DNA of 38,529 nt from Limisphaerales bacterium (lineage in GTDB: Bacteria > Verrucomicrobiota > Verrucomicrobiia > Limisphaerales > BOG-1460), in assembly GCA_003159675.1 (NCBI GenBank), contig PLQC01000149.1:1-38529 (forward strand). Direction: 5' to 3'. A program made the position numbers and the translations under genes. The notes beneath the pieces were generated by a model. That model saw nothing but the letters and a program-made list of their open reading frames with translations. It was not told where the DNA came from and searched no databases. Every line of letters begins with the position of its first letter. Within the stretch, counting starts at the first letter, position 1. Below, in pieces: positions 117 to 30,097 of this stretch.

Positions 117-1325
117 TCAAGTTGCGCCGTTTTTCAGTTCTGCATTGATGCTTTTGATCAAACTGTCTACGTGTCGCTCGTGACTGTGAATTGCGCGGGC
201 TTTTTCTGCGAAGGCCACCTTGTTTAGTGGCTCGCTCAACATTGCCTTGATGCCCTTGGCAACTTCTGAGGCAGTGTCCTGAACGAATGTAAACCCGGGC
301 TCCGGACGTGCAATTTCACCATAACCTATTCGAGCTTTCTGCGTTCCTGGATCAAGTAAAACAACCGGCAATCCGGAAACCAACGCTTCCATCACCACCA
401 TCGAATAACAGTCATAGTAGGAAAGGTGAACGAATACATCGGCCTGGGCATACAGATCGGGCATGTCCTTCCGACGCTCCAAAACTCTAACTTTTTCTTT
501 AAGCCCACGGTTGGCAACTTCTGTTTTCAACAGCGCGAGCTCAGCTCCGTCGCCCGCAATCCACCATTCAACATTCGGCTCCAGCAGAGGGGCCGCCTCT
601 AAAATTAGCCGCCAGTTCTTAGATCCCACAATTCGAATCGCCGACAGCACCACTCGCCTTGGGTTTTGAATTGATTGATTCCGCGTTCCCACGCCATAAT
701 GGCTGACATCCACACCATTCGGAATAATCTCCAAATGTTTTCGGTGATGATATCCGTATGTTTCACAAATAAGATTCGAGAAGAAATTGGAACTAACGAT
801 AATCTTGCGGGACAAGTTAAGCGCCCACTTCTCAAATTTCAAACTCATCCAACAGTTAAATTGCCTGCTCCACCGCCTGAACAGTCCTGACACGGATGGC
901 CCTGGATCCATCTTGATATCCATTGCCGCCAACGATCCCGGCAAAAAAAACCTCGGACTTTTACAGGTTGCCGCAGCCACTAGAATAGCCATAAAGTGGT
1001 TGGATATTATCACATCCGGCATTAACAGGTTTAACCGTTTCCGTGTGCTTCTGTATAGTTGAATTAGTAGGAAAATAGAGTAGAGGCTCCAGCAACCGCG
1101 TGGCAGCCATACCTCCGGAATTCGATACTTGTGGATTACACAATCTATCCCGTCAAGCGTAGATGTTCCATCTGGAACGAGAACGTGTAACTCCACGTTC
1201 CGCCTTGACAATAATCGTGCCGTATCGATCAGGTATGAGGTGTTGCCGCCGATCACATTAGCATTGCACCCATAGAACAATACGATTCGAAGTTTTCCGC
1301 CAGAAGGCGAGTGAGTATTAGGCAT
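117..1325 (-). CDS. Glycosyltransferase family 4 (GT-B fold), glycan biosynthesis
   Basis: The 402-residue protein should transfer a sugar from a nucleotide-sugar donor to a growing surface glycan in the cytoplasm. The N-terminal Rossmann half has a glycine-rich acceptor-side loop (VIGGNTSYL, about residues 25-33). The C-terminal half carries PNGVDVSHY (about 205), a WIAGDGAEL donor-domain strand and the conserved SMVVMEALVSGLPVV segment, which is the second half of the GT4 E-x7-E signature. The usual first glutamate position reads as part of YYDCYS, so this end of the motif is atypical. Its ATG overlaps the stop of the upstream acyltransferase gene by 8 nt, which implies translational coupling in an operon. 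Base composition is AT-richer than the polysaccharide genes at 12-16 kb. The family is clear; the sugar specificity cannot be read. Confidence 0.9.
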   Translation of the reverse strand: MPNTHSPSGGKLRIVLFYGCNANVIGGNTSYLIDTARLLSRRNVELHVLVPDGTSTLDGIDCVIHKYRIPEVWLPRGCWSLYSIFLLIQLYRSTRKRLNLLMPDVIISNHFMAILVAAATCKSPRFFLPGSLAAMDIKMDPGPSVSGLFRRWSRQFNCWMSLKFEKWALNLSRKIIVSSNFFSNLICETYGYHHRKHLEIIPNGVDVSHYGVGTRNQSIQNPRRVVLSAIRIVGSKNWRLILEAAPLLEPNVEWWIAGDGAELALLKTEVANRGLKEKVRVLERRKDMPDLYAQADVFVHLSYYDCYSMVVMEALVSGLPVVLLDPGTQKARIGYGEIARPEPGFTFVQDTASEVAKGIKAMLSEPLNKVAFAEKARAIHSHERHVDSLIKSINAELKNGAT

Positions 1326-1905
1326 GGTTATCTGGATGTTTTAGTTTTAGACCCGGATACCATTCAGGGTGCCCCTGCATCTGCCGCCTATGTTTTTCAA
1401 TGTAAGCCTCAATAGTGCAAATTACTCTGGCAGGATTGCCAGTCACAACCACACCAGAAGGAACGTCACGAGTGACGACAGATCCCGCTCCAACAATGCT
1501 TCTCGGCCCTACCGTAACACCGCCCATGATTATCGCATTGACGCCAACAAAACAATCATCCTTGATTTCGGTGGTGCGGGAAATCGAGATGCGGTCAAAC
1601 AACCCCTTCCCTTGGAGTTCGCGAATATACAATGCTGGGGAAGCGTCGTGGCCCAAAATAATGCATTTTGTCAAAACACAATTGTTGCCCACAATGATGG
1701 GATCTTTGCCGTCCTGTCCAAATGTTACGTCACTAATATAACAGTTTTCCCCGATCTTCATGCCTCGTCCTCGGTAAAGTTCAATACGTTGCTGCATTAT
1801 GCTGGCGTCGTCTTCTTCAGCAGAAGAGACTAAACGAAGAAAACGTCTCAACACTGCTGACAGCAAAGCTGTTAGCCTTTTACAAATAATATTTAAATAC
1901 TTCAT
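1318..1905 (-). CDS. Hexapeptide-repeat acyltransferase (LbH fold)
   Basis: This 195-residue protein of the left-handed beta-helix acyltransferase family probably O-acetylates (or otherwise acylates) a sugar of the exported glycan. The helix is visible as hexapeptide steps in two blocks, around residues 50-80 (KIGENCYISDVTFG, IIVGNNCVLTKCII) and 115-160 (CFVGVNAIIMGGVTVGP, SIVGAGSVVTRDVP, VVVTGNPARVI). The histidine in ILGHDAS is a candidate catalytic base. The N-terminus (residues 5-25) is hydrophobic and basic and may touch the membrane. It sits between the methyltransferase and the GT4 genes, overlapping the latter by 8 nt, so it is part of the same minus-strand operon. Acetyl-CoA as donor is the family norm, not something shown here. 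Confidence 0.87.
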   Translation of the reverse strand: MKYLNIICKRLTALLSAVLRRFLRLVSSAEEDDASIMQQRIELYRGRGMKIGENCYISDVTFGQDGKDPIIVGNNCVLTKCIILGHDASPALYIRELQGKGLFDRISISRTTEIKDDCFVGVNAIIMGGVTVGPRSIVGAGSVVTRDVPSGVVVTGNPARVICTIEAYIEKHRRQMQGHPEWYPGLKLKHPDNHA

Positions 1906-1969
1906 ATCATAAACCCTGCTGTGAAATGCCCTTGAGTCGCAGGGTTTGGGTTCTCAGTTTTTAACCTCT

Positions 1970-2656
1970 CTACCGCTGGTGTGGTTTTACACTTGTAGTC
2001 AAACGCAACCAAACCCGTGAGAGTCTCCTACAAACCCCGCTAAACTTTCCCTCAACAACCGGTAACATCTCGGGTCTTGCCACCGGGCACCGGGCCGAAA
2101 CTTTGCGGATTATGGCTATCTGCTTTTGGTCGTTGCTGCAAATGAAGAAGTTTGTCGCCCCAGTATGCTTCCACGCTATGAGGTTTATAAAGTTGTTCGC
2201 ACTCAGCGCGCACCGGTGTGTTTCCGCTTCATTGCCTCCCCACGCCCCTTGCGGTTGATTATAAGAAGGTGCTGTTGCGATTAGAACGGAGGATTTTTCC
2301 GAAAACTTGCGGATGAGTTGTTTAGCTTCTTGTTCCTCAAAATGTTCAAGAACATCGTTACACATTATGAGGTCATAGCACTCAAGACAATCGAGTTTTG
2401 TGCGCACATCTCCCATCAACACCTTATTGTAGGCATAATCCCAAACTGGATTGCGATAGCCCTCAAAGACTTCAATGCCATCAATGGTTACCAGCCACGA
2501 CTCCTTACGAATGCGCTCATAATTTATATCAAGGTTCTGTCTAAGCAAGAATCCATAGTTACCCATACCCACCCCAACATCAAGAACCCGCAATGGCTTG
2601 AGAGCAGTGATATAGTGCAGAACTGTTGGAATGTGCCAGTGGTTACTTATCGGCAT
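1970..2656 (-). CDS. Class I SAM-dependent methyltransferase
   Basis: The 228-residue protein has the class I SAM fold: motif I reads [15 protein letters not shown] (about residues 24-38) and the post-I/IV region reads [13 protein letters not shown] (about 95-108). VLEHF is typical of Methyltransf_11/23-type small-molecule methyltransferases. In a glycan export cluster the likely substrate is a sugar or a glycan terminus. In ABC-dependent O-antigen systems a terminal methyl group can serve as the chain-length and export tag read by the Wzt C-terminal domain; that role is inferred here from position only. The gene overlaps the 3' end of the wzt-like gene by 14 nt. The last 50 residues ([14 protein letters not shown] onward) do not match the core fold and look like a basic tail. 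Confidence 0.85.
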
Positions 2657-3989
2657 AAAACCTCCATGAATGATTTAGAAACATAATACCTTGATCTGGG
2701 TTTGGGATTACCCCAGAACCATAATAATCACCATCGTGCGAATTAAAAACCAATGCTTCCTCTACCCAGTCCTGAGTTGAATTATTGGTATGTGAAAAAA
2801 TATCTACTCGTATAGTGTGGGATCGAAATGGCCATTTCTCGATACAACAGTCTCCAAACCCAGCCATCGGGAGTCTTTGGCAATTCGCCGTAAACTCCGT
2901 ATGACAATTAGTCCATAAATTGGTCAACTTCTGACCATCGGAATATAACATCACCGAGAGAGATAAAGAGTCTATTGATCGGTCACTCACCCTCCGATAA
3001 TAAACGCGAATAATACAAGATTGACCAGCTTGGATGTTGGTTGACGGAATCCCATCCACGATAAGTTCAATGCGTCCGATTCGGACATCGTCTCCTGTGT
3101 GGCGTCGGCTCAACTGGAATGTAGACCCAGCAGTTGAAACCGCAGCGAGATATTTGTGGACGAGTTCATCAGCACGGCCTCGCGCACAAACCATACCATC
3201 CACCAACCAGATAGCAGAACCACAGAGGCCAGATACTGCCGCCATGTTGTGGCTCACAAAGAGCACCGTGCGTCCTCCATGCGCCACTTCAGACATCTTC
3301 CCCAAACATTTCTTTTGAAACTGCGCATCGCCCACGGCCAGCACTTCGTCCACAATCAGGATTTCAGGTTCCAAATGCGCCGCCACGGCAAAGGCCAGCC
3401 GCACATACATGCCGCTGCTGTAGCGTTTCACCGGGGTGTCCAGAAACTTTTCCACCTCGGCAAACGCCACAATCTCATCAAATTTCTTTTTAATCTCGGC
3501 GCGGTGCATTCCCAGAATCGCGCCGTTTAGGAAAATGTTTTCGCGCCCGGTCAGTTCCGGGTGGAACCCGGTGCCCACTTCCAGCAGGCTCGCCACGCGG
3601 CCTCTAATGCGGATGCGGCCTTCCGTCGGTTCGGTGATGCGGCTCAGGATTTTCAGCAGCGTGCTCTTGCCCGCCCCGTTCCGCCCAATAATCCCCACCA
3701 CCTCGCCCTGTTTGACCTCGAAGGAAACGTTGCGCAAAGCCCAGAAGTCTTCGGAGGACGGAGGTCGGAGGTCAGAGGTCGGATCGGAACCGGTGGTCGG
3801 AGGACGGAGGTCGGAGGTCGGATTCTGACTTCTGACTTCTGACTTCTGACTCCTTCTTAAAAATTTGAATCGAGCAGCAAATTTTTGCGCAATCACATCT
3901 CGCAGCGCCACATACCGCCTGCCTTCGGCCTGATGCTGAATCCGATACTTTTTACCGAGATTTTCGACCGAGATGATGACGTCACTCAT
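2643..3989 (-). CDS. wzt: Polysaccharide ABC transporter ATP-binding protein (Wzt-like) with C-terminal glycan-binding domain
   Basis: This is the ATPase that would power export of a lipid-linked glycan with the Wzm-like permease encoded upstream. The start is placed at the ATG giving [17 protein letters not shown] (448 residues). A longer frame to 4040 adds 17 residues unlike the family. Walker A is GRNGAGKST (residues 102-110), followed by a signature [12 protein letters not shown], Walker [13 protein letters not shown] and the switch histidine in LFVSHN. From about residue 285 a beta-rich domain follows, in the position where Wzt proteins bind their cargo glycan. Between residues 46 and 79 lies a low-complexity insert ([18 protein letters not shown] and similar) made of the same word repeats found in the neighbouring intergenic DNA. 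The 5' two thirds are GC-rich and the 3' third is AT-rich, which hints at domain replacement. Confidence 0.93.
3750..3855. repeat. Word-type repeat inside the wzt reading frame
   Basis: On the plus strand this reads as repeats of GGAGGTCGGAGGTCAGAGG type followed by three to four copies of TCTGACT. On the coding strand it gives SEVRSQ and TSDLRPP-type peptides. Related words (short purine/pyrimidine tracts spelling SEVRSQ or SEERRK-like peptides) are seen in the intergenic DNA of this cluster. It is in frame and sits in a linker ahead of the Walker A domain, so the protein probably tolerates it. Confidence 0.8.
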
Positions 3990-4082
3990 TGGAACAAGAA
4001 GAGCGGAGAGAGCAGAGTGGAGAGCAGGTTCATGCGGCAAGAGAACATTGTGCTTCGTTCTCCGTTCTTCTTTCTTCTCTCT

Positions 4083-4451
4083 TCATGCGGTCGTTGACTT
4101 GCGGGATTCCGTGAAGCGGATGAGACCGCCCACCAGTTGCCCGGTTCCCATCGCGTTTTTACGGAGTTCGACGGCTTCCGCCGCCTGCTTCGGATAGTTG
4201 TCCTCAATCACATAGGTCAAAGAGCGGACTTCGGCGGTTGAAGCGTGGGCCACATTGTAAAACTGTAACCTTTCTTGGACATGGCGACGCTCAAATCCTT
4301 CGGCCAGGTTCGACATCGCCGAAACTCCCGCACGTTGAATCTGGCTGCACAAACCAAAATCTCTTGCGATCACGTCCTCGCGTGTGACCGAATAAATTTG
4401 TCTGGTCAGTTGCCGGGCCTTTTGCCAGCCCTCCAAGTCTTCAAATGTCAT
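4083..4451 (-). CDS. Four-helix-bundle protein (23S rRNA-intervening-sequence protein family)
   Basis: The 122-residue protein belongs to the S23/IVP four-helix-bundle family. It begins MTFEDLEGWQKARQL and carries the conserved family block IQRAGVSAMSNLAEGFER (about residues 38-55), with helical segments before and after. Its molecular function is not established; homologues occur inside 23S rRNA intervening sequences and as free-standing genes. The start is the ATG at 4451. A longer open frame to 4625 runs antisense through the permease tail and the repeat, giving non-family sequence. It lies between wzm and wzt in the same orientation, an unusual place that separates two subunits of one transporter. 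DNA on both sides is word-repeat-like, suggesting that gene and repeats arrived together. Confidence 0.85.
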   Translation of the reverse strand: MTFEDLEGWQKARQLTRQIYSVTREDVIARDFGLCSQIQRAGVSAMSNLAEGFERRHVQERLQFYNVAHASTAEVRSLTYVIEDNYPKQAAEAVELRKNAMGTGQLVGGLIRFTESRKSTTA

Positions 4452-4522
4452 ATGCTTTCTCCTTTCTTCACTTTTTTCTTCGCTCTTCGCTCTTCTTTCT
4501 TTCCTCTTCGCGCCATAGGCGC
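4452..4522. repeat. Purine/pyrimidine word repeat between wzm and the four-helix gene
   Basis: On the minus strand this is a string of GAAGAGC-, GAAAG- and GAAAA-type words, and on the plus strand TTCTTTC and CTCTTCG. It is one of several degenerate short-word tracts that bound the small genes between 4.4 and 11 kb. Confidence 0.7.
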
Positions 4523-5368
4523 TCAGATCACGTCCGCAAACGTCCGTTCCATTTTGCGAAAATACCAGATGCCGCTCGCGCAAAGCGCGACGGTCAAAAC
4601 GATGGACAGTTGAATGCTGGGCCACCAGAAGTCGGTCTGGCCGCGCAGCAGCGCCCAGCGGAAGCCGTCAATGACGCCGACCATCGGGTTGAATGAGTAA
4701 AGCAGCCGCGCCGGGATGTCCAAACCGTGCCACAACCAGATGTCCGGCACGCGGTCACTGGTGTAGCCGACCGGCGATAGAAAGAAACCGAATTGCACGA
4801 TGAAGGGGATGATGTAACGGAAGTCGCGGTATTTCACATTCAACGCGCACAGCCAGAGTCCCGCGCCAAACGCCGCGCCAAAGGCCAGCGCTACGAAGAG
4901 TGGCAGAGCCAGCAGCCGCCAATCCGGCACGAAACGGAACCAGAGCATCATCGCCGCCATCAAACCCGTCGTGATGAGAAAATCCACAAAGCTGGTGATG
5001 ACCGAGCCTGCGGGGATGATTAGGCGCGGAAAGTAAATCTTAGAAATCAGGTTGGCGTTGCCGATGAGGCTGCTGCTGGAGGCGCTCAAGGAAGTGGAAA
5101 AGAACTGCCACGGCAGTTGCGCCGCCATCACCATCAGGAAATAAGGCACGCCAGCCGGGGCCGGCAGTTTGGCGACGCGATTAAAAACAAGGGTGAACGC
5201 CACCGTCGTCAGAAACGGCTGAATCACCGCCCAGGCAACGCCGATGACGGTCTGTTTGTAGCGGACGAGGATGTCGCGCCAAGCGAGGAAATAGAACAGT
5301 TCGCGGTAGCGCCACAGGTCACGCCAGTAATTTTTCTCGGCGCGCCCGGGTTCAATCAAGAGTTCCAT
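4523..5368 (-). CDS. wzm: Polysaccharide ABC transporter permease (Wzm-like, ABC-2 family)
   Basis: This 281-residue integral inner-membrane protein forms the channel of the glycan exporter whose ATPase is the wzt-like gene downstream. The N-terminus has the cytoplasmic interface helix typical of the family (YFLAWRDILVRYKQT, about residues 27-41), followed by VIGVAWAVIQPFLTTVAF and further hydrophobic segments, consistent with six transmembrane helices. The C-terminus reads GIWYFRKMERTFADVI, a standard ending for this family. I chose the ATG at 5368 (MELLIEPGRAEKNYW). An open frame extends 13 codons further but those codons fall in the word-repeat DNA. A four-helix-bundle gene intervenes before wzt. 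A diverged copy of the last 22 or so codons recurs at 6629-6703. Confidence 0.93.
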   Translation of the reverse strand: MELLIEPGRAEKNYWRDLWRYRELFYFLAWRDILVRYKQTVIGVAWAVIQPFLTTVAFTLVFNRVAKLPAPAGVPYFLMVMAAQLPWQFFSTSLSASSSSLIGNANLISKIYFPRLIIPAGSVITSFVDFLITTGLMAAMMLWFRFVPDWRLLALPLFVALAFGAAFGAGLWLCALNVKYRDFRYIIPFIVQFGFFLSPVGYTSDRVPDIWLWHGLDIPARLLYSFNPMVGVIDGFRWALLRGQTDFWWPSIQLSIVLTVALCASGIWYFRKMERTFADVI

Positions 5369-5740
5369 AAAATCAAAAACAGAAATTGGGAAACCAGAAA
5401 TTAACAAATCAAAAGCGAAAATCCTGAAAAACTGAAACGCTGAAAGCGACTACGGACTACGGACATTTTCAAAAGCTGACATGCTGAAATGCCGGATCAC
5501 CGACCACCGACTATGAGACAACAAGACCAAGGGACGACGGACAAATCGAAAGCGCTGAAGTGCTGCCCGGTGAAGTAGTAAAGCAAAGACTTCACGGGCC
5601 AAGGACTTCACGGGTCAGGGAAATCACAAAGTCAAAAGCTGCCAAATCAAAATTAGAAACGAGGAAAGCAGAAAACAGAAATTTATTTCATCTTTCTCTC
5701 CGAGCCAGAGGCTGCTCCGAGCTGGAGGCCGACACCCGAC
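5369..5740. repeat. Word-repeat spacer with a GTGAAGT/ACTTCAC hairpin
   Basis: No gene is seen here. The DNA is built from degenerate words: CTGAAACGCTGAAAG, GACTACGGAC, GCTGACATGCTGAAATG, then AAAGCAGAAAACAGAAA. Positions 5570-5595 can fold as a hairpin (GTGAAGT paired with ACTTCAC), preceded by GCTGCCCG. The same block recurs at 6731-6763. The last 60 nt, next to the toxin remnant, are less repetitive. Confidence 0.75.
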
Positions 5741-8935: not shown

Positions 8936-9346
8936 AATGCCGAGGACGAGCAGGCTCGTCAATACGGCAACGGCTTTGGCGAACTTTCCAGATTCCTTCT
9001 CGACTGCTTTGATCAAGCCATGCAGGCAGGCAAAGGTCTGTTTGGTCTGACCGATCAAAACATCAGCTTCTTGCGCGTTTAAATAGCCAAGCCGCTGCGA
9101 GAGATGGATGAAATACTGAGTCTCGCTCAACGAGCCGCGCGAGATATACAGGAAGTGCAGATAATCCTTCTTGCTCTCCCGCGAAGAGCCTTCGACAATA
9201 TTCGCCGGAACTGAGTAAGATGCCCTGCGCAACTGACTCGTCAGGCCGTAAATTTCCTCTCTCGGGAAAGATCGCGTCCGTTCATAAACCGCAACAGTCA
9301 AATCGTCGGCCAGCTTCCAAGCCTCAATCTTCGTATAGTCTCTCAT
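8903..9346 (-). CDS. Four-helix-bundle protein (S23/IVP family)
   Basis: The 147-residue protein starts MRDYTKIEAWKLADDL and has the family block LRRASYSVPANIVEGSSRES (about residues 39-58), a clear S23/IVP signature. A helix containing FLYISRGSLSETQYFIHLSQ follows. The last ten or so residues are encoded by word-repeat DNA, so the original stop was probably lost and the C-terminus extended. Function is unknown. It is related to, but in a different subgroup from, the four-helix genes at 4083 and 10470. Confidence 0.88.
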   Translation of the reverse strand: MRDYTKIEAWKLADDLTVAVYERTRSFPREEIYGLTSQLRRASYSVPANIVEGSSRESKKDYLHFLYISRGSLSETQYFIHLSQRLGYLNAQEADVLIGQTKQTFACLHGLIKAVEKESGKFAKAVAVLTSLLVLGISSRSLWSCSQ

Positions 9347-10469: not shown

Positions 10470-10838
10470 TTAAAGGTCTCCGCGTTTCCTGAGTTTGGAC
10501 ACCATCGTGGTAAAAATTGCCAGAAGTTCACCCGTTTCTTGGTGCAGTTGGTCAATCGTTTCATTCCGGATTCCACAATCTTCCTGGAGCAATTCGATCC
10601 ACAGTTGCGACTCGTCCGCTTCCTGTAACAATCCGTCCAGTTTCGAACAAAACTCCGAGTCCGAGCGGGCACGGGAAGCTTCGCGGGCGTGGGCCGCCAC
10701 CGACGTGCCGGAACGGAGCAGTTGATGCCCCAAAACGTCGACTTCCTTGCGCGATTTTGGCAACTGCACATAGAGCCGGATAACCGCTGAAGCATAGCGT
10801 TTGGTCCGCACTCGTAATTCTTCCGATAGCCTGCTCAT
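10470..10838 (-). CDS. Four-helix-bundle protein (S23/IVP family)
   Basis: The 122-residue all-helical protein begins MSRLSEELRVRTKRYASAV, with the block LLRSGTSVAAHAREASRARS (about residues 40-59) and LLQEADESQLWIELLQEDCG. This is the S23/IVP subgroup in which SxxAN is replaced by SVAAH. It is the intact relative of the remnant at 8712-8873. The gene is bounded on both sides by word repeats. No biochemical role is known. Confidence 0.85.
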   Translation of the reverse strand: MSRLSEELRVRTKRYASAVIRLYVQLPKSRKEVDVLGHQLLRSGTSVAAHAREASRARSDSEFCSKLDGLLQEADESQLWIELLQEDCGIRNETIDQLHQETGELLAIFTTMVSKLRKRGDL

Positions 10839-19885: not shown

Positions 19886-20605
19886 ATGAAAGGCAACCTT
19901 CTGCAACACATCGGTCTTCTGAGTCTTTGCTTGGTCACTGCTGGTTTGACTGAAGATACACGCGCGGGGCTGCCTTCGATTGAGGGGTCCCTTTCCTTCG
20001 TAGGTGTTCCGGCCCTCAACGGGCCAGTGTCCAACGCCACCGCAGTCGTCAGCTTTCCAAACGCCATTATCGTGTCAGGTGCACCCGGGAGTTATGCTGG
20101 CCTTGGCCAAATTGCCGTCAATTGGTCGCCTTTCGCGTTCTTCCCGACCGTGGTGCCGGTGGTTCCGTTGTGGAGGTTCATTACGAATGGGTTGACCTAC
20201 AGCTTTGACGCGACTTCGGTTCAGCTTGACTTTCAAAACACGAATTTCATCGACATCTTTGGAAGCGGCATTGCCCATCTTAGTGGGCACGCCGATACGC
20301 CGGGAACATGGAGCATCATAATAAGCCAGATCGGGTCGTCCGGGCTGTCCTTCGAGGCCTCCACATCTGTGAGCGCCACAAACCTGCCGTTGCTGCAATA
20401 CGTGCCGAAAACGAACGGCACAGTGGATTTCACGTGAAAGGCATTGTGGGGGCAACCCTATCAGGTGCAAACCTCGACCAATTTGTCTCAAACCAATTGG
20501 ATCAACCTCGGGGGTGTTGTAACGACGACAAACCCCGTGACCACCTTGTCGGATGTCATCGGCCCCGATCCAAACCGTTTTTATCGCGTCATCCTCGTCC
20601 CGTAA
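19886..20605 (+). pseudogene. Paralogue of the PEP-CTERM protein, interrupted by an in-frame TGA
   Basis: From ATG 19886 the first 183 codons encode a signal peptide and the same body as the upstream gene (GSLSFVGVPALNGPVSNA, LTYSFDATSVQLDFQN, HADTPGTWSIII). The frame meets TGA at 20435-20437 and, with no frame change, continues as QPYQVQTSTNLSQTNWINLG and DPNRFYRVILVP to a TAA at 20603-20605. This continuation is the same C-terminal domain that ends the other secreted proteins here. The residue at the TGA is normally tryptophan (FTW-), so TGG to TGA is the simplest reading. It could be a nonsense mutation, a sequencing error or, less likely, read-through. If repaired, the protein is 239 residues and lacks PEP-CTERM. 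Confidence 0.85.
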
Positions 20606-20992
20606 CTATTCAGCTCTTATCGTTTAACTGGCAGGCAGTATGAGGGGCGTGCGGGCTTCTCCCATCAAGTCACGCGCCGTCATCGGGGCGTTCGCAGGCG
20701 GACCCGCTACCAGCCCGGAGACTCCTGCATATTCGTTCCCCGGGATGAACTCACGGGAAACAGGCTGCGTCCGGTGGGCTTTCGCTCGGGACGCGGAAAC
20801 TTGTTCAGTTGCGGGATCAGGTAAAGCAGCAGGTCTTGCAGCTTCGTCAGAATGTTGTCGCTTTCAGCGATGCCATTTCTCTCCAAAAAATTCCACCGCT
20901 GCGCGGGCTTTGTTTCCGATCAGCCTGACCGCCACCACGGCAAAGCCTTACGCTCACCAGTTCAAAAGGGTTAAAAGGTAAAAGAGCAAAAA
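20606..20992. other. Decayed region between the broken paralogue and the FGE-like remnant
   Basis: It holds the Avd-like fragment described separately. Minus-strand positions 20624-20772 are also open in another frame (reading EFIPGNEYAGVSGLVAGPPA) without a start codon or recognised family. Positions 20940-20992 are the pyrimidine-rich tail after the variable-region stop on the minus strand (TTTTGCTCTTTTACCTTTTA). Confidence 0.5.
20707..20871 (-). pseudogene. avd: Avd-like (diversity-generating retroelement accessory) fragment
   Basis: On the minus strand the frame from about 20871 reads IAESDNILTKLQDLLLYLIP then QLNKFPRPERK. This resembles the N-terminus of DGR Avd proteins, small helical accessory proteins that bind the reverse transcriptase; their first helix typically ends in a ...LLPxLxKFPR motif. 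After KFPR the similarity is lost and the frame stops at 20707-20709, and there is no start codon in frame, so it is a broken fragment. Its place directly downstream of an FGE-type variable region on the same strand is the normal gene order in a DGR. Without a database search this assignment is moderate. A four-helix-bundle protein of another subgroup is the alternative. Confidence 0.5.
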
Positions 20993-21125
20993 CTAAAGCC
21001 CCCTCACACAACGAAACCCGATGTCGTTGAAGGCAAGCGACGGGTGGTAGATGAAGCGATGGGCGCAACGCGTGTTGCTGGCGTAGCTGCTCCAATAGCC
21101 GCCGCGCAACACACGGCCGCTCCCA
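20993..21125 (-). pseudogene. C-terminal FGE-sulfatase-like remnant, probable DGR variable region
   Basis: The minus-strand frame reads SGRVLRGGYWSSYASNTRCA, HRFIYHPSLAFNDIGFRCVR and ends GL-stop at 20993. RVLRGG(S/Y)W...RCAxR...GFRCVR is the C-terminal core of formylglycine-generating-enzyme-like proteins, a common DGR target. The residues that vary in DGRs are here encoded by NNY codons: TAT after GG, AGC, AGC, TAC, AGC, CAT, TTC, ATC, TAC, CAC, CTT, TTC. Each could arise from an AAY template codon by adenine mutagenesis. The upstream part of the protein is absent: at 21126 the DNA switches to a LuxR-gene copy. It cannot be functional alone. Confidence 0.7.
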
Positions 21126-21206
21126 GATGCCGAGGATGCGCGCGATAACAGCATTGGTCTTGCCTTCGCTGATCCGCCAGGCGACCTCAAACTGACGCGG
21201 ACTCAG
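21126..21206 (-). pseudogene. Fragment of a duplicated LuxR-family gene (HTH part)
   Basis: Positions 21126-21206 match 27718-27798 of the intact LuxR gene at 79 of 81 positions by eye. They encode LSPRQFEVAWRISEGKTNAV and IARILGI of the GerE helix-turn-helix. The rest of the gene is missing: the right edge (CTCAG) joins directly to sequence matching the start of the LuxR gene, a deletion of about 920 bp between two CTCAG repeats. The left edge abuts the FGE-like remnant. Confidence 0.9.
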
Positions 21207-21345
21207 TCACCAACGGGAGGTTCATAATACGCATTTATACGTATTGCAAGGCAAACTTTTTAAGATAGCGTGCCTGGATATCCCGCGGTTTGTCGAAGGA
21301 CCCACGCATTTCATGTGATCGGGAAAGGTTGTGCGAGCCGACAAA
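21202..21345. repeat. Duplicated regulatory region (copy 1)
   Basis: This region matches 28714-28857 upstream of the intact LuxR gene. The first 53 positions differ at only one base; similarity then falls but remains clear to about 21345 (TGCGAGCCGACAA shared). It includes the palindrome described separately. It lies directly upstream of the exported protein gene at 21457. Confidence 0.88.
21226..21245. promoter_or_regulatory. Palindrome, copy 1 of candidate LuxR-regulator site
   Basis: AATACGCATTTATACGTATT is an 8-4-8 palindrome with one mismatch. The other copy (28738-28757) is perfect. Its position between a LuxR start region and a plus-strand exported-protein gene suggests an operator shared by both copies. 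Confidence 0.5.
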
Positions 21346-22845: not shown

Positions 22846-22902
22846 CACTTGACCGCGCGGATGACGATTTGGAACTTTGAAGACCCAACCAAACGGACAA
22901 CC

Positions 22903-24270
22903 ATGAATACCAAATGTAACCTGATTCGGATCTGCCTGCTGTGCGCGGTGCTTTTTCATGCGGCCGACAGCGGAGCGCAAACCGTGACCCAGATTGCCGC
23001 AGGATTCTATCACAGCCTGTTTCTCAAGAGTGATGGCAGCCTATGGGCCATGGGCTATAACAACGATGGCCAGTTGGGCGATGGCATGGTTGATGGCACT
23101 TTTAATAGCACCAACCGCCCCGAGCAAATTGTGGCCACGAACGTTACGGCAATCGCCGCAAACTCCCACAGCTTGTTTCTCAAGAGCGACGGCAGTCTAT
23201 GGGGCATGGGCTATAATGGCGATGGCGAGTTGGGCGATGGCACTATAAACAATACCAATCGTCCAGAGCGAATTGTGATTACTAACGTGACGGCGATTGT
23301 GGCCAGCAGCGGCCACAGCTTGTTTCTCAAAAGCGACGGCAGCCTGTGGGCCATGGGCTTCAACGGTGATGGTAGTTTGGGTGACGGCACTTTCACCAGC
23401 ACCAACCAACCGGAACAAATCGTCGCTACCAATGTCACGGCCATTGCCGCCGGAGACAACCACACCCTGTTTCTCAAGCGCGATGGCAGTCTGTGGGCGA
23501 TGGGTCGCAACGTGGAAGGTCAATTGGGCGACGGCACTGTTAGTTCCACCACCAACCGGCCCGAACAGATTATCGCCACTAACGTCACGGCGATTGCCGG
23601 AGGCTCCTGGCACACCCTGTTTCTTATGAGCGATGGCAGTCTGTGGGCCATGGGCGACAACGACGATGGCCAACTAGGCGACGGTACTTTTAATAACACC
23701 AACCGGCCGGAACAAATTATAGCCAGCAATGTCACGGCCATTTCCGCCGGTCAACACCATAGTTTATTTCTCAAGGATGACGGGAGCCTATGGGCCATGG
23801 GCTTGAACAGTTCAGGCGAATTGGGCGATGGCACAAACTCCAGAACAAACCGTCCCGAGCAGATTGTCGCCAGTGGTGTCGCTGCGATTGCCGCTGGACT
23901 GGAACACAGCCTGTTTCTTAAGAACGACGGCAGTTTGTGGGCCATGGGCTACAACTTTTTTGGTCAATTGGGCGACGGCACCACTGATCACGGCCTCTAC
24001 ACCACCAACCTTCCCGAGCAGATTGTGGCCGGTTCAATCGTGCCGCCCAGCTACAAAATCTCCGCCCAGCTTTTGAGCGGGGGAGGTGTTCAGTTGTCCT
24101 TTGTGGGCATCGCCGGAACGAATTATGCGCTGGACCGCGCGTTCAACCTATCACCGGCCAACTGGATGCCGCAGGTGACCAATCCCGCCGGCGCGGGCGG
24201 GGTGCTGGTGCTCACCAACACGCCCAACCCGGCCACCAACAATTTCTGGCGCATCCGCTCCGTGCCATAA
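22903..24270 (+). CDS. Secreted RCC1-repeat protein 1
   Basis: The 455-residue protein starts at ATG 22903 with a signal peptide (residues 1-26, ending DSGAQ). Seven RCC1-type repeats of about 48 residues follow, with consensus VTAIAAGxxHSLFLKSDGSLWAMG...GQLGDGT...NRPEQIVATN, enough for a seven-bladed beta-propeller. The last 75 residues (from SYKISAQLLSGGGVQLSF to NFWRIRSVP) are the shared C-terminal domain. Extracellular RCC1 propellers have no known catalytic role; binding of a polymer or partner is inferred. It is the first of three tandem paralogues. Confidence 0.9.
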   Translation: MNTKCNLIRICLLCAVLFHAADSGAQTVTQIAAGFYHSLFLKSDGSLWAMGYNNDGQLGDGMVDGTFNSTNRPEQIVATNVTAIAANSHSLFLKSDGSLWGMGYNGDGELGDGTINNTNRPERIVITNVTAIVASSGHSLFLKSDGSLWAMGFNGDGSLGDGTFTSTNQPEQIVATNVTAIAAGDNHTLFLKRDGSLWAMGRNVEGQLGDGTVSSTTNRPEQIIATNVTAIAGGSWHTLFLMSDGSLWAMGDNDDGQLGDGTFNNTNRPEQIIASNVTAISAGQHHSLFLKDDGSLWAMGLNSSGELGDGTNSRTNRPEQIVASGVAAIAAGLEHSLFLKNDGSLWAMGYNFFGQLGDGTTDHGLYTTNLPEQIVAGSIVPPSYKISAQLLSGGGVQLSFVGIAGTNYALDRAFNLSPANWMPQVTNPAGAGGVLVLTNTPNPATNNFWRIRSVP

Positions 24271-24353
24271 CGATGGTTTCGTGGGGAACGAAGAACAATC
24301 CAGAAAACGCAGACCCAACACTGTGCCTAAAATCAAAAACGGAAAGCAAAACA

Positions 24354-25706
24354 ATGAAAACTAAACGAAACCTGATTCAAATTTGCCTGCTGTGTGCGGT
24401 GCTGTTGCAAGCACTGTCCAGCGGAGCGCAAACCGTGACCAAGATCGCCGCAGGAACATCCCACAGCCTGTTTCTCAAGAGCGACGGCAGTTTCTGGGCC
24501 ATGGGCGACAACACTTATGGCCAGTTGGGCGATGGCACTTACAACAACACCAACCGACCCGAGCAGGTTCTGGCCACCAATATCACGGCGATTGCCGCAG
24601 GATATGAACACAGCCTGTTTCTCAAGAGCGACACCAGTCTTTGGGCCGTGGGTGACAACAACTATTATGGCCAGTTGGGCGACGGCACTTACACAACCAC
24701 CAACCGCCCCCAGCAGATTGTGGCCACCAACGTTACGGCGATTGCCGGCGGATTCGGCCACAGCCTGTTTCTCAAGAGCGACGGCAGCCTGTGGGCCATG
24801 GGCTGGAATAACAATGGCCAGTTGGGCGATGGCACTTACAACACGACCAACCGCCCCGAGCAGATTGTGTCCAGCAACGTCACAGCGATCGCCGCAGGAA
24901 CATACCACAGCCTGTTTCTCAAGAAGGACGGCAGTCTGTGGGGCATGGGCGACAACTATTATGGCCAGTTGGGCGAAGGCACTTACCAAAACTGGACCAA
25001 CCAGCCCGAGCTGATTGTGTCCAACAACGTCACGGCAATTGCCGCAGGAGGCTTCCACAGCCTGTTTATCAAGAGCGACACCAGTCTGTGGGCCATGGGC
25101 TGGAATGAGTATGGCGAGTTGGGCGACGGCACTTCTGATAATGGCTACTATGAAACCAACCGCCCCGAACAAATTGTGTCCACCAACGTCACGGCGATTG
25201 CCGCAGGAACATATCATAGCCTGTTTATCAAGAGCGACGGCAGTTTGTGGGCCATGGGCTACAACCCAGATGGCGAGTTGGGCGACGGCACTATCAACAA
25301 TAAATTCAGTCCCGAGCCGATTGTGTCCAATAACGTCACGGCGATTGCCGCAGGAAGCTACGGCTACCACAGCCTGTTTCTCAAGACCGACGGCAGTCTG
25401 TGGGGCATGGGCCAGAACACCTCTGGCCAGTTGGGCGACGGCACCACCACCAGCACTAACCGCCCCGAACTGATTGTGGCCGGTCCACTCCAGCTCTCCA
25501 TCCAGCTTTTGAGCGGCGGAAATGTGCGTTTGTCTTGCGTGGGCCTGGTCGGAACGGATTACGCGCTGGATCGTTCCTTCAGCCTGTCACCGGCCAACTG
25601 GGTGCCGCAGGTGACCAATCCCGCCGGCGCGGGCGGGGTGCTGGTGCTCACCAACACGCCCAACCCGGCCACCAACAATTTCTGGCGCGTCCGCTCCGTG
25701 CCGTAA
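24354..25706 (+). CDS. Secreted RCC1-repeat protein 2
   Basis: The 450-residue paralogue starts at ATG 24354 (MKTKRNLIQICLLCAVLLQA) with a signal peptide and seven RCC1 repeats. It differs from the first mostly in the variable loops between the GQLGDGT and NRPEQIV blocks (for example NYYGQLGEGTYQNWTNQPEL). The C-terminal domain runs from LQLSIQLLSGGNVRLSCVG to NFWRVRSVP and lacks the PPSYKIS linker of copies 1 and 3. The 83-bp intergenic segment before it closely matches that before copy 3, so the unit duplicated with its spacer. Loop changes with constant scaffold suggest divergence of ligands, but this is not tested. Confidence 0.9.
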   Translation: MKTKRNLIQICLLCAVLLQALSSGAQTVTKIAAGTSHSLFLKSDGSFWAMGDNTYGQLGDGTYNNTNRPEQVLATNITAIAAGYEHSLFLKSDTSLWAVGDNNYYGQLGDGTYTTTNRPQQIVATNVTAIAGGFGHSLFLKSDGSLWAMGWNNNGQLGDGTYNTTNRPEQIVSSNVTAIAAGTYHSLFLKKDGSLWGMGDNYYGQLGEGTYQNWTNQPELIVSNNVTAIAAGGFHSLFIKSDTSLWAMGWNEYGELGDGTSDNGYYETNRPEQIVSTNVTAIAAGTYHSLFIKSDGSLWAMGYNPDGELGDGTINNKFSPEPIVSNNVTAIAAGSYGYHSLFLKTDGSLWGMGQNTSGQLGDGTTTSTNRPELIVAGPLQLSIQLLSGGNVRLSCVGLVGTDYALDRSFSLSPANWVPQVTNPAGAGGVLVLTNTPNPATNNFWRVRSVP

Positions 25707-25788
25707 CGATGGTTTCGTGCGGAACGAAGAACATTCCAGAAAACGCAGAAGCAACACTGTGCCCAAAATCAAAAACGAAAGCAAAACC

Positions 25789-27171
25789 ATGAAAACCACA
25801 CGAAACCTGATTCACATTTGCCTGCTGGGTGCGGTGCTGTTGCAAGCGCTCACCAGCGGAGCACAAACCGTGACCAAGATCGCCGCAGGACAATACCACA
25901 GCCTGTTTCTCAAGAGTGATGGCAGCCTATGGGCCATGGGCTACAACTTGAATGGCGAGTTGGGCGACGGCACTTACAGCACCACCAACCAGCCTGAGCT
26001 GATTGTGTCCAACAACGTCATGGCGATTGCCGCAGGAGGTTACCACAGCTTGTTTCTCAAGAGCGACGGCAGCCTGTGGGCCATGGGCGACAACTTTTAT
26101 GGCGAGTTGGGCGACGGCACTGACTTTAACAACACCAACCGACCCGAGCTGATTGTGTCCAACAACGTCACGGCGATTGCCGCAGGATTCGATCACAGCC
26201 TGTTTCTCAAGAGCGACGGCAGCTTGTGGGCCATGGGCTTCAACTTTTATGGCGAGTTGGGGGACGGCACCGCCAACTACTACATCGACCAACCCGAGAT
26301 GATTGTGTCCAACAACGTCACGGCGATTGCCGCCGGAACCGACCATAGCCTGTTTCTCAAGAGCGATGGCAGTCTCTGGGCCATGGGCTATAACAACTAT
26401 GGCCAGTTGGGGGATGGCACCGCCAACATCTTAACCAACCAGCCTGAACTGATTGTGTCCAACAACGTCACGGCGATTGCCGCCAGATACGACCAAAGTC
26501 TGTTTCTCAAAAGCGATGGCAGCCTGTGGGGTATGGGTTTTAATGGCGCTGGCCAATTGGGCGACGGCACTTACAACAACACCAACCTCCCCGAGATGAT
26601 TGTGTCCAACAACGTCACGGCGATTGCAGCCGGGGCCAGCCACAGCCTGTTTCTCAAGAGCGACGGCAGTCTGTGGGCCGTGGGCGGGAACGAGTATGGC
26701 GAGTTGGGCGACGGCACTTACAGTAGTAACGCCCCATACGATGCAACTAACCGCCCCGAGCTGATTGTGTCCAACAACGTCACGGCGATTGCAGCCGGGG
26801 CCAGCCACAGCCTGTTTCTCAAGAGCAACGGCAGTTTGTGGGCCATGGGCTGGAACAACGAGGGTCAGTTGGGCGACGGCACCACTGATCACGGCCTCTA
26901 CACCACCAACCTTCCCGAGCAGATTGTGGCCGGTTCAATCGTGCCGCCCAGCTATAAAATCTCCGTCCAGCTTATGAGCGGCGGCAATGTGCAACTGTCC
27001 TTTGTGGGCATCGCCGGAACGAATTATGCGCTGGACCGCACGTTCAACCTATCACCGGCCAACTGGGTGCCGCAGATGACCAATCCCGCCGGCGCGGGCG
27101 GGGTGCTGGTGCTCACCAACACGCCCAACCCGGCCACCAACAATTTCTGGCGCATCCGCTCTGTGCCGTAG
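25789..27171 (+). CDS. Secreted RCC1-repeat protein 3
   Basis: The 460-residue paralogue starts at ATG 25789 (MKTTRNLIHICLLGAVLLQA) with signal peptide and seven RCC1 repeats. Repeats use NVTAIAAG and QPELIVSNN or RPELIVSNN linkers, unlike the EQIVATN of copy 1. The last repeat and C-terminal domain (TTDHGLYTTNLPEQIVAGSI ... NFWRIRSVP) match copy 1 almost exactly, while the signal peptide and linkers are closer to copy 2. This mosaic suggests gene conversion or unequal exchange between tandem copies. Confidence 0.9.
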   Translation: MKTTRNLIHICLLGAVLLQALTSGAQTVTKIAAGQYHSLFLKSDGSLWAMGYNLNGELGDGTYSTTNQPELIVSNNVMAIAAGGYHSLFLKSDGSLWAMGDNFYGELGDGTDFNNTNRPELIVSNNVTAIAAGFDHSLFLKSDGSLWAMGFNFYGELGDGTANYYIDQPEMIVSNNVTAIAAGTDHSLFLKSDGSLWAMGYNNYGQLGDGTANILTNQPELIVSNNVTAIAARYDQSLFLKSDGSLWGMGFNGAGQLGDGTYNNTNLPEMIVSNNVTAIAAGASHSLFLKSDGSLWAVGGNEYGELGDGTYSSNAPYDATNRPELIVSNNVTAIAAGASHSLFLKSNGSLWAMGWNNEGQLGDGTTDHGLYTTNLPEQIVAGSIVPPSYKISVQLMSGGNVQLSFVGIAGTNYALDRTFNLSPANWVPQMTNPAGAGGVLVLTNTPNPATNNFWRIRSVP

Positions 27172-27606: not shown

Positions 27607-28704
27607 CTAAATTGAAGGCGCTGACTTTTTGAGCAACCGTAAGATCACACCCACGCGCGTTTCGACGCCGAGCCGCTGAAAAATATTTTCCACATGCTTG
27701 TGGACAGTGCGTGGGCTGATGCCGAGGATGCGCGCGATATCAGCATTGGTCTTGCCTTCGCTGATCCACCAGGCGACCTCAAACTGACGCGGACTCAGGT
27801 TGAGCGCCGTGGAATTTTTCAGCCAGTCCCGCGATGGATCCAGCCTGAGACTCAATACCATTTGGCCCGAAATGGTTGATGGAACCCTTTGGATGGAAAG
27901 TTCTCCGTGAGCGCGGTTGAGCAGCAATGGCGGTTCCTTTGTTCTTAAATCACGAGACACTGCCAGCCTCCGCTGAGCCCAGTTCAACATTTCTGCCGGC
28001 AATTTTCCGTTCGGGCACGGGCCGATCCAATCCAGCGCCGCCCCCGTGTGATTGAGAATCCGGCCTTCCTGGGTGGCGGTGACTGTGGCCAGCGAGTGCT
28101 GGTGCATGGCCAGAGAGGCGTCGGTGGCTACCTGGCGCATCTGGTCGGCAACACGAAGGTTTTGGAGCGCAACGAGCAACTGGGCGCGAAAATGTTCCAG
28201 CACGGTACGGTCGCGATTGCTGTAGTCATGGGAGCGCCGGGACAACGCAAAGGCGGTGATTTGGTTCTGCTTCGTATGGAGGGCGGCGGAAATCTGGTAT
28301 TCGACGCCCAAAGGACGATAGACATCGGTATAAAGTTCCAGTTGATGAAATGCCTCTCGCGAGAGAAAGTCGGAGATTTTGAGGACCGACAAATCCTGCT
28401 TGTTCATCTGCCGGGTGATGATCGGATGCTGGTGGGCGAAGGCGGCGAATTTGGGTAGCAGCGCACCAATGGAACCCATGTCCGGCCGCAACAGCACAAA
28501 GTTCTTTTGCGGCGATTGAAAATCGACCTCGTTGTAGGAAAACCAGTCGGAGGGAACCAGTCGGGGAAAGGCGTCCTCGAGCAGCCAAAGCCGGAGGACG
28601 GACACGTCCCGAAACGAGTGCAGTTCGCGGATGCAATCCAGCAGCAAATCATAATCCTGCGAGCCAAGCCGGAACATGGACTTTGGGGTATTTGGAGCGG
28701 GCAT
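27607..28704 (-). CDS. LuxR-family (GerE HTH) transcriptional regulator
   Basis: The 365-residue regulator has a C-terminal LuxR/GerE helix-turn-helix (LNLSPRQFEVAWWISEGKTN, ADIARILGISPRTVHKHVEN then IFQRLGVETRVGVI) and a long N-terminal sensory region without a recognised receiver motif, probably GAF/PAS-like. ATG 28704 (MPAPNTPKSMFRLG) is chosen because GAGAGGAAG lies just upstream; longer starts at 28737 and 28746 would put the N-terminus inside the palindrome. It diverges from the NHL-repeat gene. A perfect palindrome lies 34-53 nt upstream, suggesting autoregulation and control of the divergent gene. A deleted duplicate of it lies at 21126. Confidence 0.88.
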   Translation of the reverse strand: MPAPNTPKSMFRLGSQDYDLLLDCIRELHSFRDVSVLRLWLLEDAFPRLVPSDWFSYNEVDFQSPQKNFVLLRPDMGSIGALLPKFAAFAHQHPIITRQMNKQDLSVLKISDFLSREAFHQLELYTDVYRPLGVEYQISAALHTKQNQITAFALSRRSHDYSNRDRTVLEHFRAQLLVALQNLRVADQMRQVATDASLAMHQHSLATVTATQEGRILNHTGAALDWIGPCPNGKLPAEMLNWAQRRLAVSRDLRTKEPPLLLNRAHGELSIQRVPSTISGQMVLSLRLDPSRDWLKNSTALNLSPRQFEVAWWISEGKTNADIARILGISPRTVHKHVENIFQRLGVETRVGVILRLLKKSAPSI

Positions 28705-28737
28705 TTTCTTCCTCTCAGTCACCAACGGGAGGTTCAT

Positions 28738-28757
28738 AATACGCATTTATGCGTATT
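28738..28757. promoter_or_regulatory. Perfect palindrome, candidate operator of the LuxR-family regulator
   Basis: AATACGCATTTATGCGTATT has perfect 8-bp arms and a 4-bp centre. It lies between the LuxR-family start (28704) and the divergent NHL-repeat gene. It is conserved in the duplicated region at 21226-21245 despite drift elsewhere in the copy. Confidence 0.6.
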
Positions 28758-28789
28758 GCAAGGCAATGTTTCTAAGATAGGCTGCCTCG

Positions 28790-30097
28790 ATGCCCTGCGG
28801 TTTATCGAAACACGAACGCATTTTATGCGATCGGGGATGGTCTGCGCGAGCCGACAACAGAATCCCTGGGAAACCTTTTTTTATCGTGGTGCTGACATTG
28901 ACGTTGCTTAACGGCACTTGTCAGCCCTTGCCCGAGCTCGATTACACACCTTATGCGTTCAGCACCGCAGCCGGGCTGGCGGGCTTTCCGGGCACCAATA
29001 GCGGACCCGGGAGCTTCGCGCGGTTCCATAATCCGGCCGGCGTGGCCGTGGACGTCAGCAACAACGTCTATGTGGCCGACACCTTTAACGGCGCCATCCG
29101 GAAAACGACGCCGGCTGGAACCAACTGGACGGTGTCCACGCTCGCCAGCGGTTTTAATTATCCTTACGGCGTGGCCGTGGACATCAGCAACAACGTCTAT
29201 GTGGCCGACACGTTAAACGGTGCCATCCGGAAAATGACGCCGCTGGGAACCAACTGGACGGTGTCCACGCTCGCGAGCGGTTTTAATTACCCCAACAGCG
29301 TGGCCGTGGACACCAATGGCAACGTCTATGTGGCGGACTCTTACAATTCCATTATTCGCAAAGTGACGCCGTTGGGAGGGGTCACAACTCTTGCCGGACA
29401 GTTGGGCAGCCCTGGCACCAATGACGGGACCGGGACCGCCGCGCGTTTTAATCTTCCCCTGGGCGTGGCGGTGGACAGCGCGGGCAACGTCTATGTGGCA
29501 GATACCTACAACGAAACGATTCGGAAAGTGACGGCCAGCGGGGTGGTGAGCACCCTGGCCGGAATGCCTGGCGTTTCTGGCGGCGTGGACGGGACCGGAA
29601 GCGTCGCACGGTTTGATTTTCCCAGTGGCGTGGCGGTGGACAGCGCCACCAACGTCTATGTGGCCGACACCGACAACGATACCATCCGCAGAGTCACTCC
29701 CGCGGGAGTGGTGACGACGTTGGGCGGACTGCTGGGCAATGCCGGGAGCACGGATGCGGCGGGGAACGGAGCGCGGTTTAACAATCCTCAAGGGGTTGCC
29801 GCCAGCGCCGACGGCATCAGCATCTATGTGGCCGACTCCGGCAACTGCACGATCCGGAGTGGGGTGCTGGTCAGCAGCGTGCCGGTGATTGTCCCCGGCA
29901 GCCTCGCCTTCAGCAGCAACCACTTTGGCTTCAATCTGACCGGCACGGCGGAGCAGTTGGTGGTGGTGCAAACGTCAACGAATCTCGTGAACTGGCTTCC
30001 CATCTGGACCAACACCTTCGGCACCGGCCTCCTTCCCTTCAGCGACCCGCAGAGCGGGGTTTCTTCCGAACGCTTTTATCGGGCGTTCACACCATGA
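28790..30097 (+). CDS. NHL-repeat secreted protein with shared C-terminal domain
   Basis: The frame of up to 435 residues contains six NHL repeats (for example AGVAVDVSNNVYVADTFNGA, LGVAVDSAGNVYVADTYNET), forming a six-bladed propeller. The last 75 residues (SLAFSSNHFGFNLTGTAEQ ... SERFYRAFTP) are the common C-terminal domain. The start is uncertain. ATG 28790 lies inside the duplicated regulatory region, which is non-coding in copy 1. The hydrophobic stretch FFIVVLTLTLLNGTCQP (about residues 30-46) is the probable signal peptide, so translation might begin later at a non-ATG codon. It is divergent from the LuxR-family gene and plausibly regulated by it. Confidence 0.82.
   Translation: MPCGLSKHERILCDRGWSARADNRIPGKPFFIVVLTLTLLNGTCQPLPELDYTPYAFSTAAGLAGFPGTNSGPGSFARFHNPAGVAVDVSNNVYVADTFNGAIRKTTPAGTNWTVSTLASGFNYPYGVAVDISNNVYVADTLNGAIRKMTPLGTNWTVSTLASGFNYPNSVAVDTNGNVYVADSYNSIIRKVTPLGGVTTLAGQLGSPGTNDGTGTAARFNLPLGVAVDSAGNVYVADTYNETIRKVTASGVVSTLAGMPGVSGGVDGTGSVARFDFPSGVAVDSATNVYVADTDNDTIRRVTPAGVVTTLGGLLGNAGSTDAAGNGARFNNPQGVAASADGISIYVADSGNCTIRSGVLVSSVPVIVPGSLAFSSNHFGFNLTGTAEQLVVVQTSTNLVNWLPIWTNTFGTGLLPFSDPQSGVSSERFYRAFTP

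What the first reader, a model, noticed from the sequence alone, without database searches (positions are those of the whole stretch)
20707..21125. Possible remains of a diversity-generating retroelement
The minus strand holds an FGE-type C-terminal core (RVLRGGYWSSYASNTRCA ... GFRCVR) followed by a fragment reading LLLYLIPQLNKFPR, which looks like an Avd N-terminus. That is the gene order of a DGR. The positions expected to vary are all NNY codons (TAT, AGC, TAC, CAT, TTC, ATC, CAC, CTT), as adenine mutagenesis of AAY would give. No template repeat or reverse transcriptase is in the window, so this is a relic or a displaced remote target. The Avd reading is less secure than the FGE reading.
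Basis: partly seen in the sequence, partly recalled or inferred. Interest (0 to 1): 0.8.

Follow-up and report, generated by a model that had tools for sequence, protein, structure and literature searches.

The report
Deleted remnant of a gene-diversifying retroelement
This stretch is what is left of a complete gene-diversifying retroelement (a system that deliberately scrambles part of one of the cell's own proteins) after deletions removed its reverse transcriptase and its template; it is a known kind of thing, here caught dead, with intact relatives in other Verrucomicrobia.

Summary
Window 20671-21132 (minus strand) is an internally deleted diversity-generating retroelement (DGR). Intact DGRs of the order FGE target - avd - RT - TR - structured RNA occur in relatives (MAGs titled Verrucomicrobia, several 'subdivision 3'). 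The window matches both ends of that cassette and lacks the middle: 21116-20792 aligns to VR, spacer and the first ~27 avd codons (76.7%), then continues in the region just 3' of the TR (83.7%). About 1.55 kb (rest of avd, RT, TR) is missing there. The avd start codon is also mutated (ATG to ATC). Against six relatives' TRs the window VR differs at 14/28 template-adenine sites and 0/76 non-adenine sites (p = 5e-10). No DGR RT or TR is in the genome assembly; its only RT is unrelated. The FGE 5' end is deleted too, fused through a 7-bp microhomology to a deleted LuxR-gene copy whose intact version lies 6.4 kb away. Two other targets (C157, C141) survive as orphans, and genome G267 carries an independent deletion of the same kind. 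Degenerate DGRs and remote targets are already known, so this is a new example of a known kind. Less expected are the recurrent RT loss and the conserved RNA 3' of the TR.

The parts
20671..20792 (-). region that lies 3' of the TR in intact DGRs (3' part of the putative sp RNA)
   Evidence: 83.7% to L073 4382-4503 and 86.1% to L074 5538-5658; covariance model R1, built without the window, hits 20683-20792(-) at 94.7 bits, E 5.5e-23
20791..20793 (.). deletion junction: avd codon ~27 joined to post-TR sequence; about 1.55 kb (rest of avd, RT, TR) missing relative to L073; at most 1 bp of microhomology
   Evidence: L073 2511-2831 followed directly by L073 4382-4503
20791..20865 (-). avd fragment, 25 codons
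   Evidence: 24/25 aa identical to L073 Avd; 8 synonymous and 1 nonsynonymous codon differences
20869..20871 (-). dead avd start codon: ATC where relatives have ATG
   Evidence: alignment; C157 keeps ATG
20872..20992 (-). FGE-avd spacer, including the conserved tail GTTTTTGCTCTTTTACCTTTTAACCCTTTTGAAC
   Evidence: the tail pattern occurs in 27 of 320 genomes of the order, with 0 hits for the reversed control pattern
20993..21132 (-). 3' end of an FGE-type variable-protein gene, stop codon at 20993-20995
   Evidence: PF03781; 77% DNA identity to C141 and 74% to C157
20996..21116 (-). variable repeat (VR), ending in the IMH-like GGGTTTCGTTGTGTGAGGGGG
   Evidence: 80% to the TR of L074 and 79% to the TR of L073; 14/28 template-A sites changed, 0/76 other sites
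21126..21132 (.). deletion junction with 7-bp microhomology CGGCATC: LuxR-gene relic joined to FGE 3' end; FGE 5' part missing
21126..21206 (-). relic of a LuxR-gene copy, HTH part
   Evidence: 97.5% to window 27718-27798
21202..21344 (-). relic of the same LuxR-gene copy, start codon and upstream region; joined to the HTH part at CTGAG (5-bp microhomology)
   Evidence: 85.4% to window 28714-28857
27607..28746 (-). intact LuxR-type regulator gene, the paralogue of the relic
   Evidence: GerE PF00196 E 5.4e-17

Best explanation
The stretch is the scar of a complete DGR. The ancestor worked by mutagenic retrohoming: the RT with Avd copied the TR RNA, misreading adenines, starting from the structured RNA 3' of the TR; the cDNA replaced the VR at the 3' end of an FGE-fold gene and so scrambled about 18 codons of its C-type-lectin pocket. 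In this lineage deletions then removed (i) the rest of avd, the RT and the TR, (ii) the 5' end of the FGE gene and whatever lay before it, and (iii) the middle of an upstream LuxR-gene copy; two of the three junctions carry 5-7 bp microhomologies. The locus now makes nothing. Two other targets of the same DGR type, C157 (open reading frame) and C141, persist with frozen variable regions. Shown: the anatomy, the junctions, the adenine-restricted VR pattern, the intact relatives, the absence of RT and TR from the assembly. Inferred: the retrohoming mechanism (from the BPP-1 DGR), microhomology-mediated deletion, that the locus is silent, and that the surviving targets are frozen.
For: Both cassette ends found, middle missing, in L073, L074 and L072 comparisons. 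Avd fragment 24/25 identical to an intact Avd that passes NF033474 and PF22296 cut-offs. RT of the intact relatives matches chain 8ub7_A (reverse transcriptase) at 1.6e-42, best of all PDB chains and far ahead of group II RTs; that 8ub7 is the BPP-1 DGR RT is from my own knowledge. TRs predicted from the VR pattern were found with 0-2 mismatches right after those RTs. Window VR: 14/28 A sites changed, 0/76 others. C157 and C141 show the same pattern (16/27 vs 0/75; 18/28 vs 1/76). The window's post-TR region hits an independent RNA model at E 5.5e-23. The full-length orphan FGE resembles Treponema denticola variable protein 1, 2y3c (E 1.7e-22). Independent second deletion FGE-partial avd-post-TR RNA in G267:C47. 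No DGR RT or TR in G000.
Against: The genome is a 182-contig assembly, 96.7% complete, so an intact DGR could lie in the missing part. The TR that made this VR is not available; TRs of relatives stand in for it. The relic sits on one contig from one genome, so an assembly chimera at a junction cannot be excluded directly, although the parent sequences of the FGE/avd/post-TR pieces are absent from the assembly and the LuxR pieces differ from the intact copy. Homing was not tested.
Confidence: 0.95

Rival explanations
1. Remote target: the locus never had its own RT/TR and arose by duplication of a target gene plus the start of avd, diversified in trans by a DGR elsewhere.
For: Remote targets are common in other phyla (PMC7517822); C141 has FGE only and C157 has FGE plus about 13 avd codons.
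Against: The window also carries the region 3' of the TR, directly joined to avd, which a copied target with the avd start would not have; the FGE gene has lost its 5' part; no DGR RT or TR in the genome.
Confidence: 0.03
2. Ordinary FGE-family pseudogene with no DGR history; the NNY pattern is codon bias or positive selection and the Avd match is chance.
For: An FGE-domain gene with no DNA match to the relic exists in this genome (C105); the Avd profile match alone is weak.
Against: 14/28 vs 0/76; DNA-level collinearity with an intact DGR over 450 bp on both sides of a deletion; RNA model hit.
Confidence: 0.01
3. Assembly chimera: pieces of an intact DGR and a LuxR gene misjoined, with the real DGR missing from the assembly.
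For: Assembly of 182 contigs; short microhomologies at two junctions are also what misassembly uses.
Against: Three junctions within 700 bp; LuxR pieces are 97.5% and 85.4% identical to the intact copy, not copies of it; dead avd start codon; a different genome shows the same kind of deletion with other breakpoints.
Confidence: 0.03

Closest known systems
Diversity-generating retroelement with FGE/CLec target, avd and RT (BPP-1 type; TvpA of Treponema denticola as target fold)
   Same: VR with adenine-restricted changes, FGE-fold C-terminus, IMH-like VR 3' end, avd downstream of the target; intact relatives add RT and TR
   Different: RT, TR and most of avd deleted here; in the intact relatives the TR and its RNA structure lie 3' of the RT, whereas in BPP-1 the order is avd-TR-sp-RT (PMC12875486)
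Degenerate DGR loci of Thiohalocapsa PB-PSB1 (PMC10907252), Anabaena sp. 90 (PMC7517822) and those with inactivated RTs in the DiGReF survey (PMC3521204)
   Same: DGR loci with missing or broken RT/TR; in the DiGReF cases the VRs keep an A-only pattern
   Different: In Thiohalocapsa and DiGReF the described causes are transposon or MITE insertion, nonsense, frameshift and, in some strains, deletion; here internal deletions left both cassette ends, and no intact DGR remains in the assembly to act in trans
Verrucomicrobia (subdivision 3) DGRs L072, L073, L074 found here
   Same: VR, spacer, avd start and post-TR region collinear, 64-86% identical
   Different: They are complete; two of them lie behind IS66 transposase genes, of which the ORF list of the window shows no trace

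Membership tests
DGR (diversity-generating retroelement) | VR differing from a TR only or almost only at TR adenines | tested here: met
   14/28 adenine sites vs 0/76 others, p = 5e-10, using the TRs of six relatives
DGR (diversity-generating retroelement) | DGR-type reverse transcriptase | tested here: not met
   none in the window or genome; the only RT (C104) is Drt3a-like beside type I R-M genes. Present in relatives. Hence 'relic', not a functional DGR
DGR (diversity-generating retroelement) | template repeat | tested here: not met
   no TR in G000; present behind the RT in relatives
DGR (diversity-generating retroelement) | accessory protein Avd | tested here: met
   fragment only: 25 codons, 24/25 identical to an intact Avd; dead start codon
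DGR (diversity-generating retroelement) | variable protein of the C-type-lectin / FGE fold with VR at its C-terminus | tested here: met
   PF03781; orphan paralogue matches T. denticola variable protein 1, 2y3c
DGR (diversity-generating retroelement) | IMH at the VR end followed by an inverted repeat | tested here: inconclusive
   VR end GTGTGAGGGGG shared with the TR, conserved tail beyond it; no stem-loop was tested for
DGR (diversity-generating retroelement) | mutagenic retrohoming activity | not testable with these tools
   needs population reads or an assay
NF033474 DivGenRetAVD | curated score cut-off of 80 bits | tested here: not met
   window fragment 16.2 bits over 25 residues; intact relatives 97.7-101.1 bits

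The most novel reading that the evidence does not exclude
In this order of Verrucomicrobia DGR cassettes come and go (two sit behind IS66 transposase genes with similar ends) while their targets persist, so that lineages alternate between diversifying and locked targets; orphan targets might then be rewritten again in trans when a new cassette arrives.
Probability: 0.2. Interest if true: 0.65.

Novelty: new member of a known kind. Interest (0 to 1): 0.4.

Why it matters
It shows that a DGR can be recognised from about 450 bp after its enzyme and template are gone, and gives a concrete route to find such relics: search VR tails and the post-TR RNA rather than the RT. In the order sampled, 19 of 27 genomes with these VR tails have no related RT at E <= 1e-30, so surveys that start from the RT will miss many past targets. 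If it holds in finished genomes, loss of the mutator with retention of the mutated receptor would be a common end state for DGRs.

Tried and rejected
PF05635/NF033474 scans of the genome found four-helix-bundle proteins of the IVP type; none passes the Avd cut-off. The genome's one RT (C104:18215) was considered as the lost DGR RT and rejected: Drt3a-like, inside a type I R-M operon, no TR. The C105 FGE has no DNA match to the relic. Search for the RT on plasmids, phages and viral contigs to find a mobile trans-acting copy: best 49% (cyanobacterial plasmids), 37.5% (phages) and 34% (viral contigs) identity, so no vehicle close to this clade. Post-TR RNA against Rfam: no match. Target-site duplications of the IS66-linked cassettes: not found by eye in the flanks printed. 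C157 downstream sequence was searched for the rest of the cassette: only the avd start, no post-TR region.

Full report
What is in the window. On the minus strand, from 21344 down to 20671, four pieces follow each other: a deleted LuxR-gene copy (21344-21202 and 21206-21126), the 3' end of an FGE-type gene (21132-20993), the spacer and 25 readable codons of avd (to 20791), and 120 bp that belong, as shown below, to the region 3' of a template repeat (20792-20671). The FGE piece passes the PF03781 cut-off. The Avd piece alone is a weak profile hit.

Related sequences in the same genome. A DNA search of the assembly (4.11 Mb, 182 contigs, 96.7% complete) finds two paralogues of the FGE end: C157, where the similarity continues through the spacer to about avd codon 13, and C141, FGE only. 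It also finds the window's own LuxR gene at 27607-28746 in two separate blocks. The only reverse transcriptase (C104) resembles defence RTs and sits among type I restriction genes. A predicted template-repeat pattern has no match in this genome.

Intact relatives. The same pattern, searched over 320 genomes of the order, hit three, with 0, 1 and 2 mismatches. At all three the template follows an RT, which follows avd, which follows an FGE gene. The Avd proteins pass NF033474 and PF22296. The RT's best PDB match is 8ub7_A, 'Reverse transcriptase' (1.6e-42), which I know as the BPP-1 DGR enzyme. A broader scan names the carriers as Verrucomicrobia, several of subdivision 3, with relatives in Planctomycetes at about 50% identity.

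The deletion. Window 21116-20792 aligns to L073 2511-2831 (VR, spacer, avd start; 76.7%) and 20792-20671 to L073 4382-4503 (83.7%), which lies just 3' of the TR. L074 and L072 give the same junction. So roughly 1,550 bp, holding the rest of avd, the RT and the TR, are missing. The avd start codon reads ATC where relatives have ATG. The other two junctions lie in shared words, CGGCATC (LuxR to FGE) and CTGAG (inside LuxR). The avd fragment differs from L073 by 8 synonymous and 1 nonsynonymous codon, and the coding pieces of the LuxR relic are far closer to the intact gene than the upstream piece; both suggest that the decay is recent compared with the divergence of the parents. That is an inference from few sites.

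The variable region. With six TRs from relatives, 28 positions are adenine in all and 76 are adenine in none. The window VR has changed at 14 of the 28 and at 0 of the 76 (p = 5e-10); C157 16/27 and 0/75, C141 18/28 and 1/76. Several non-adenine differences from the G246 TR (ACG, CGT, GCC, CAT codons) are the codons of the G111 TR, as expected if the lost TR was a further variant.

The RNA 3' of the TR. In six intact loci the ~195 nt after the TR fold into a consensus of 53 pairs, 14 with changes on both sides (8.0 expected from shuffles, 0/500 as high; slid controls 0-4). Rfam has no match. In BPP-1 a structured spacer next to the TR recruits the RT-Avd complex and primes cDNA synthesis (PMC12875486); I assign the same role here by position, untested. 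A model of its 3' part, built without the window, finds the window relic at 94.7 bits.

How common is this. In the order, 27 of 320 genomes carry the VR tail, several in many copies (G118 9, G122 9), and 8 of these 27 have a related RT at E <= 1e-30, 5 of them a close one. Among the 16 tail-bearing genomes of good quality the count is 3. The cut-offs are mine, distant RTs could be missed, and the genomes are mostly draft assemblies. G267 carries FGE, about two thirds of avd and then the post-TR RNA: an independent deletion with other breakpoints. G240 and G109 carry the RNA with no TR in front.

Known or new. Inactivated DGRs with A-only VRs (PMC3521204), degenerate loci with missing RT or TR (PMC10907252), a lone RT remnant (PMC7517822) and remote targets are all published. 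This locus is a further example, in a lineage where I found no description of one in the papers searched. The interest lies in the clean two-ended scar, the RT-less genomes and the RNA.

Noticed in passing
L167 4131-9557 (G246:C125), L074 about 319-5712 (G249:C314): Two intact DGRs lie directly behind IS66 tnpA/B/C-like genes; the left end GTATGCGGCTGACGGTCCACGTC and the right end GTATCCGCCTGACGAGCCACATC form an imperfect inverted repeat (18/23), and the flanks differ beyond it. The DGR may be IS66 cargo; no target-site duplication was seen.
   Followed up: partly
L162 about 1516-1685 (G240:C18), L160 1491-1640 (G109:C424): Solo copies of the post-TR RNA without TR or RT; in G240 the copy starts in the middle of the RNA and is 98% identical to that of G246.
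   Followed up: partly
L163 (G267:C47, VR tail 135427, RNA 135813): Second, independent internally deleted DGR: complete FGE 3' end, about two thirds of avd, then the post-TR RNA.
   Followed up: partly
window 19886-20607 (+): The neighbouring secreted-protein gene has an in-frame TGA at 20435-20437; the frame beyond it reads on into a typical C-terminus (...FYRVILVP), so this gene looks decayed too.
   Followed up: no
L021 7334-9274 (G000:C104): A 646-aa RT, most like Drt3a (E 7e-18, below cut-off), sits between hsdM/hsdS-like and hsdR-like genes of a type I restriction system.
   Followed up: no
window 22849-27171 (+): Three tandem paralogues with RCC1-like repeats (SDGSLWAMG..GQLGDGT), about 77% identical in DNA.
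   Followed up: no
window 4152-4442, 9023-9331, 10515-10805 (-): Three 23S-rRNA-intervening-sequence type four-helix proteins (PF05635) within 7 kb, 13 such matches in the genome.
   Followed up: no
L073 3201-4301, L074 4359-5459: The RT frame reads on through the template repeat in these two loci, while in L072 the RT stops just before it.
   Followed up: no
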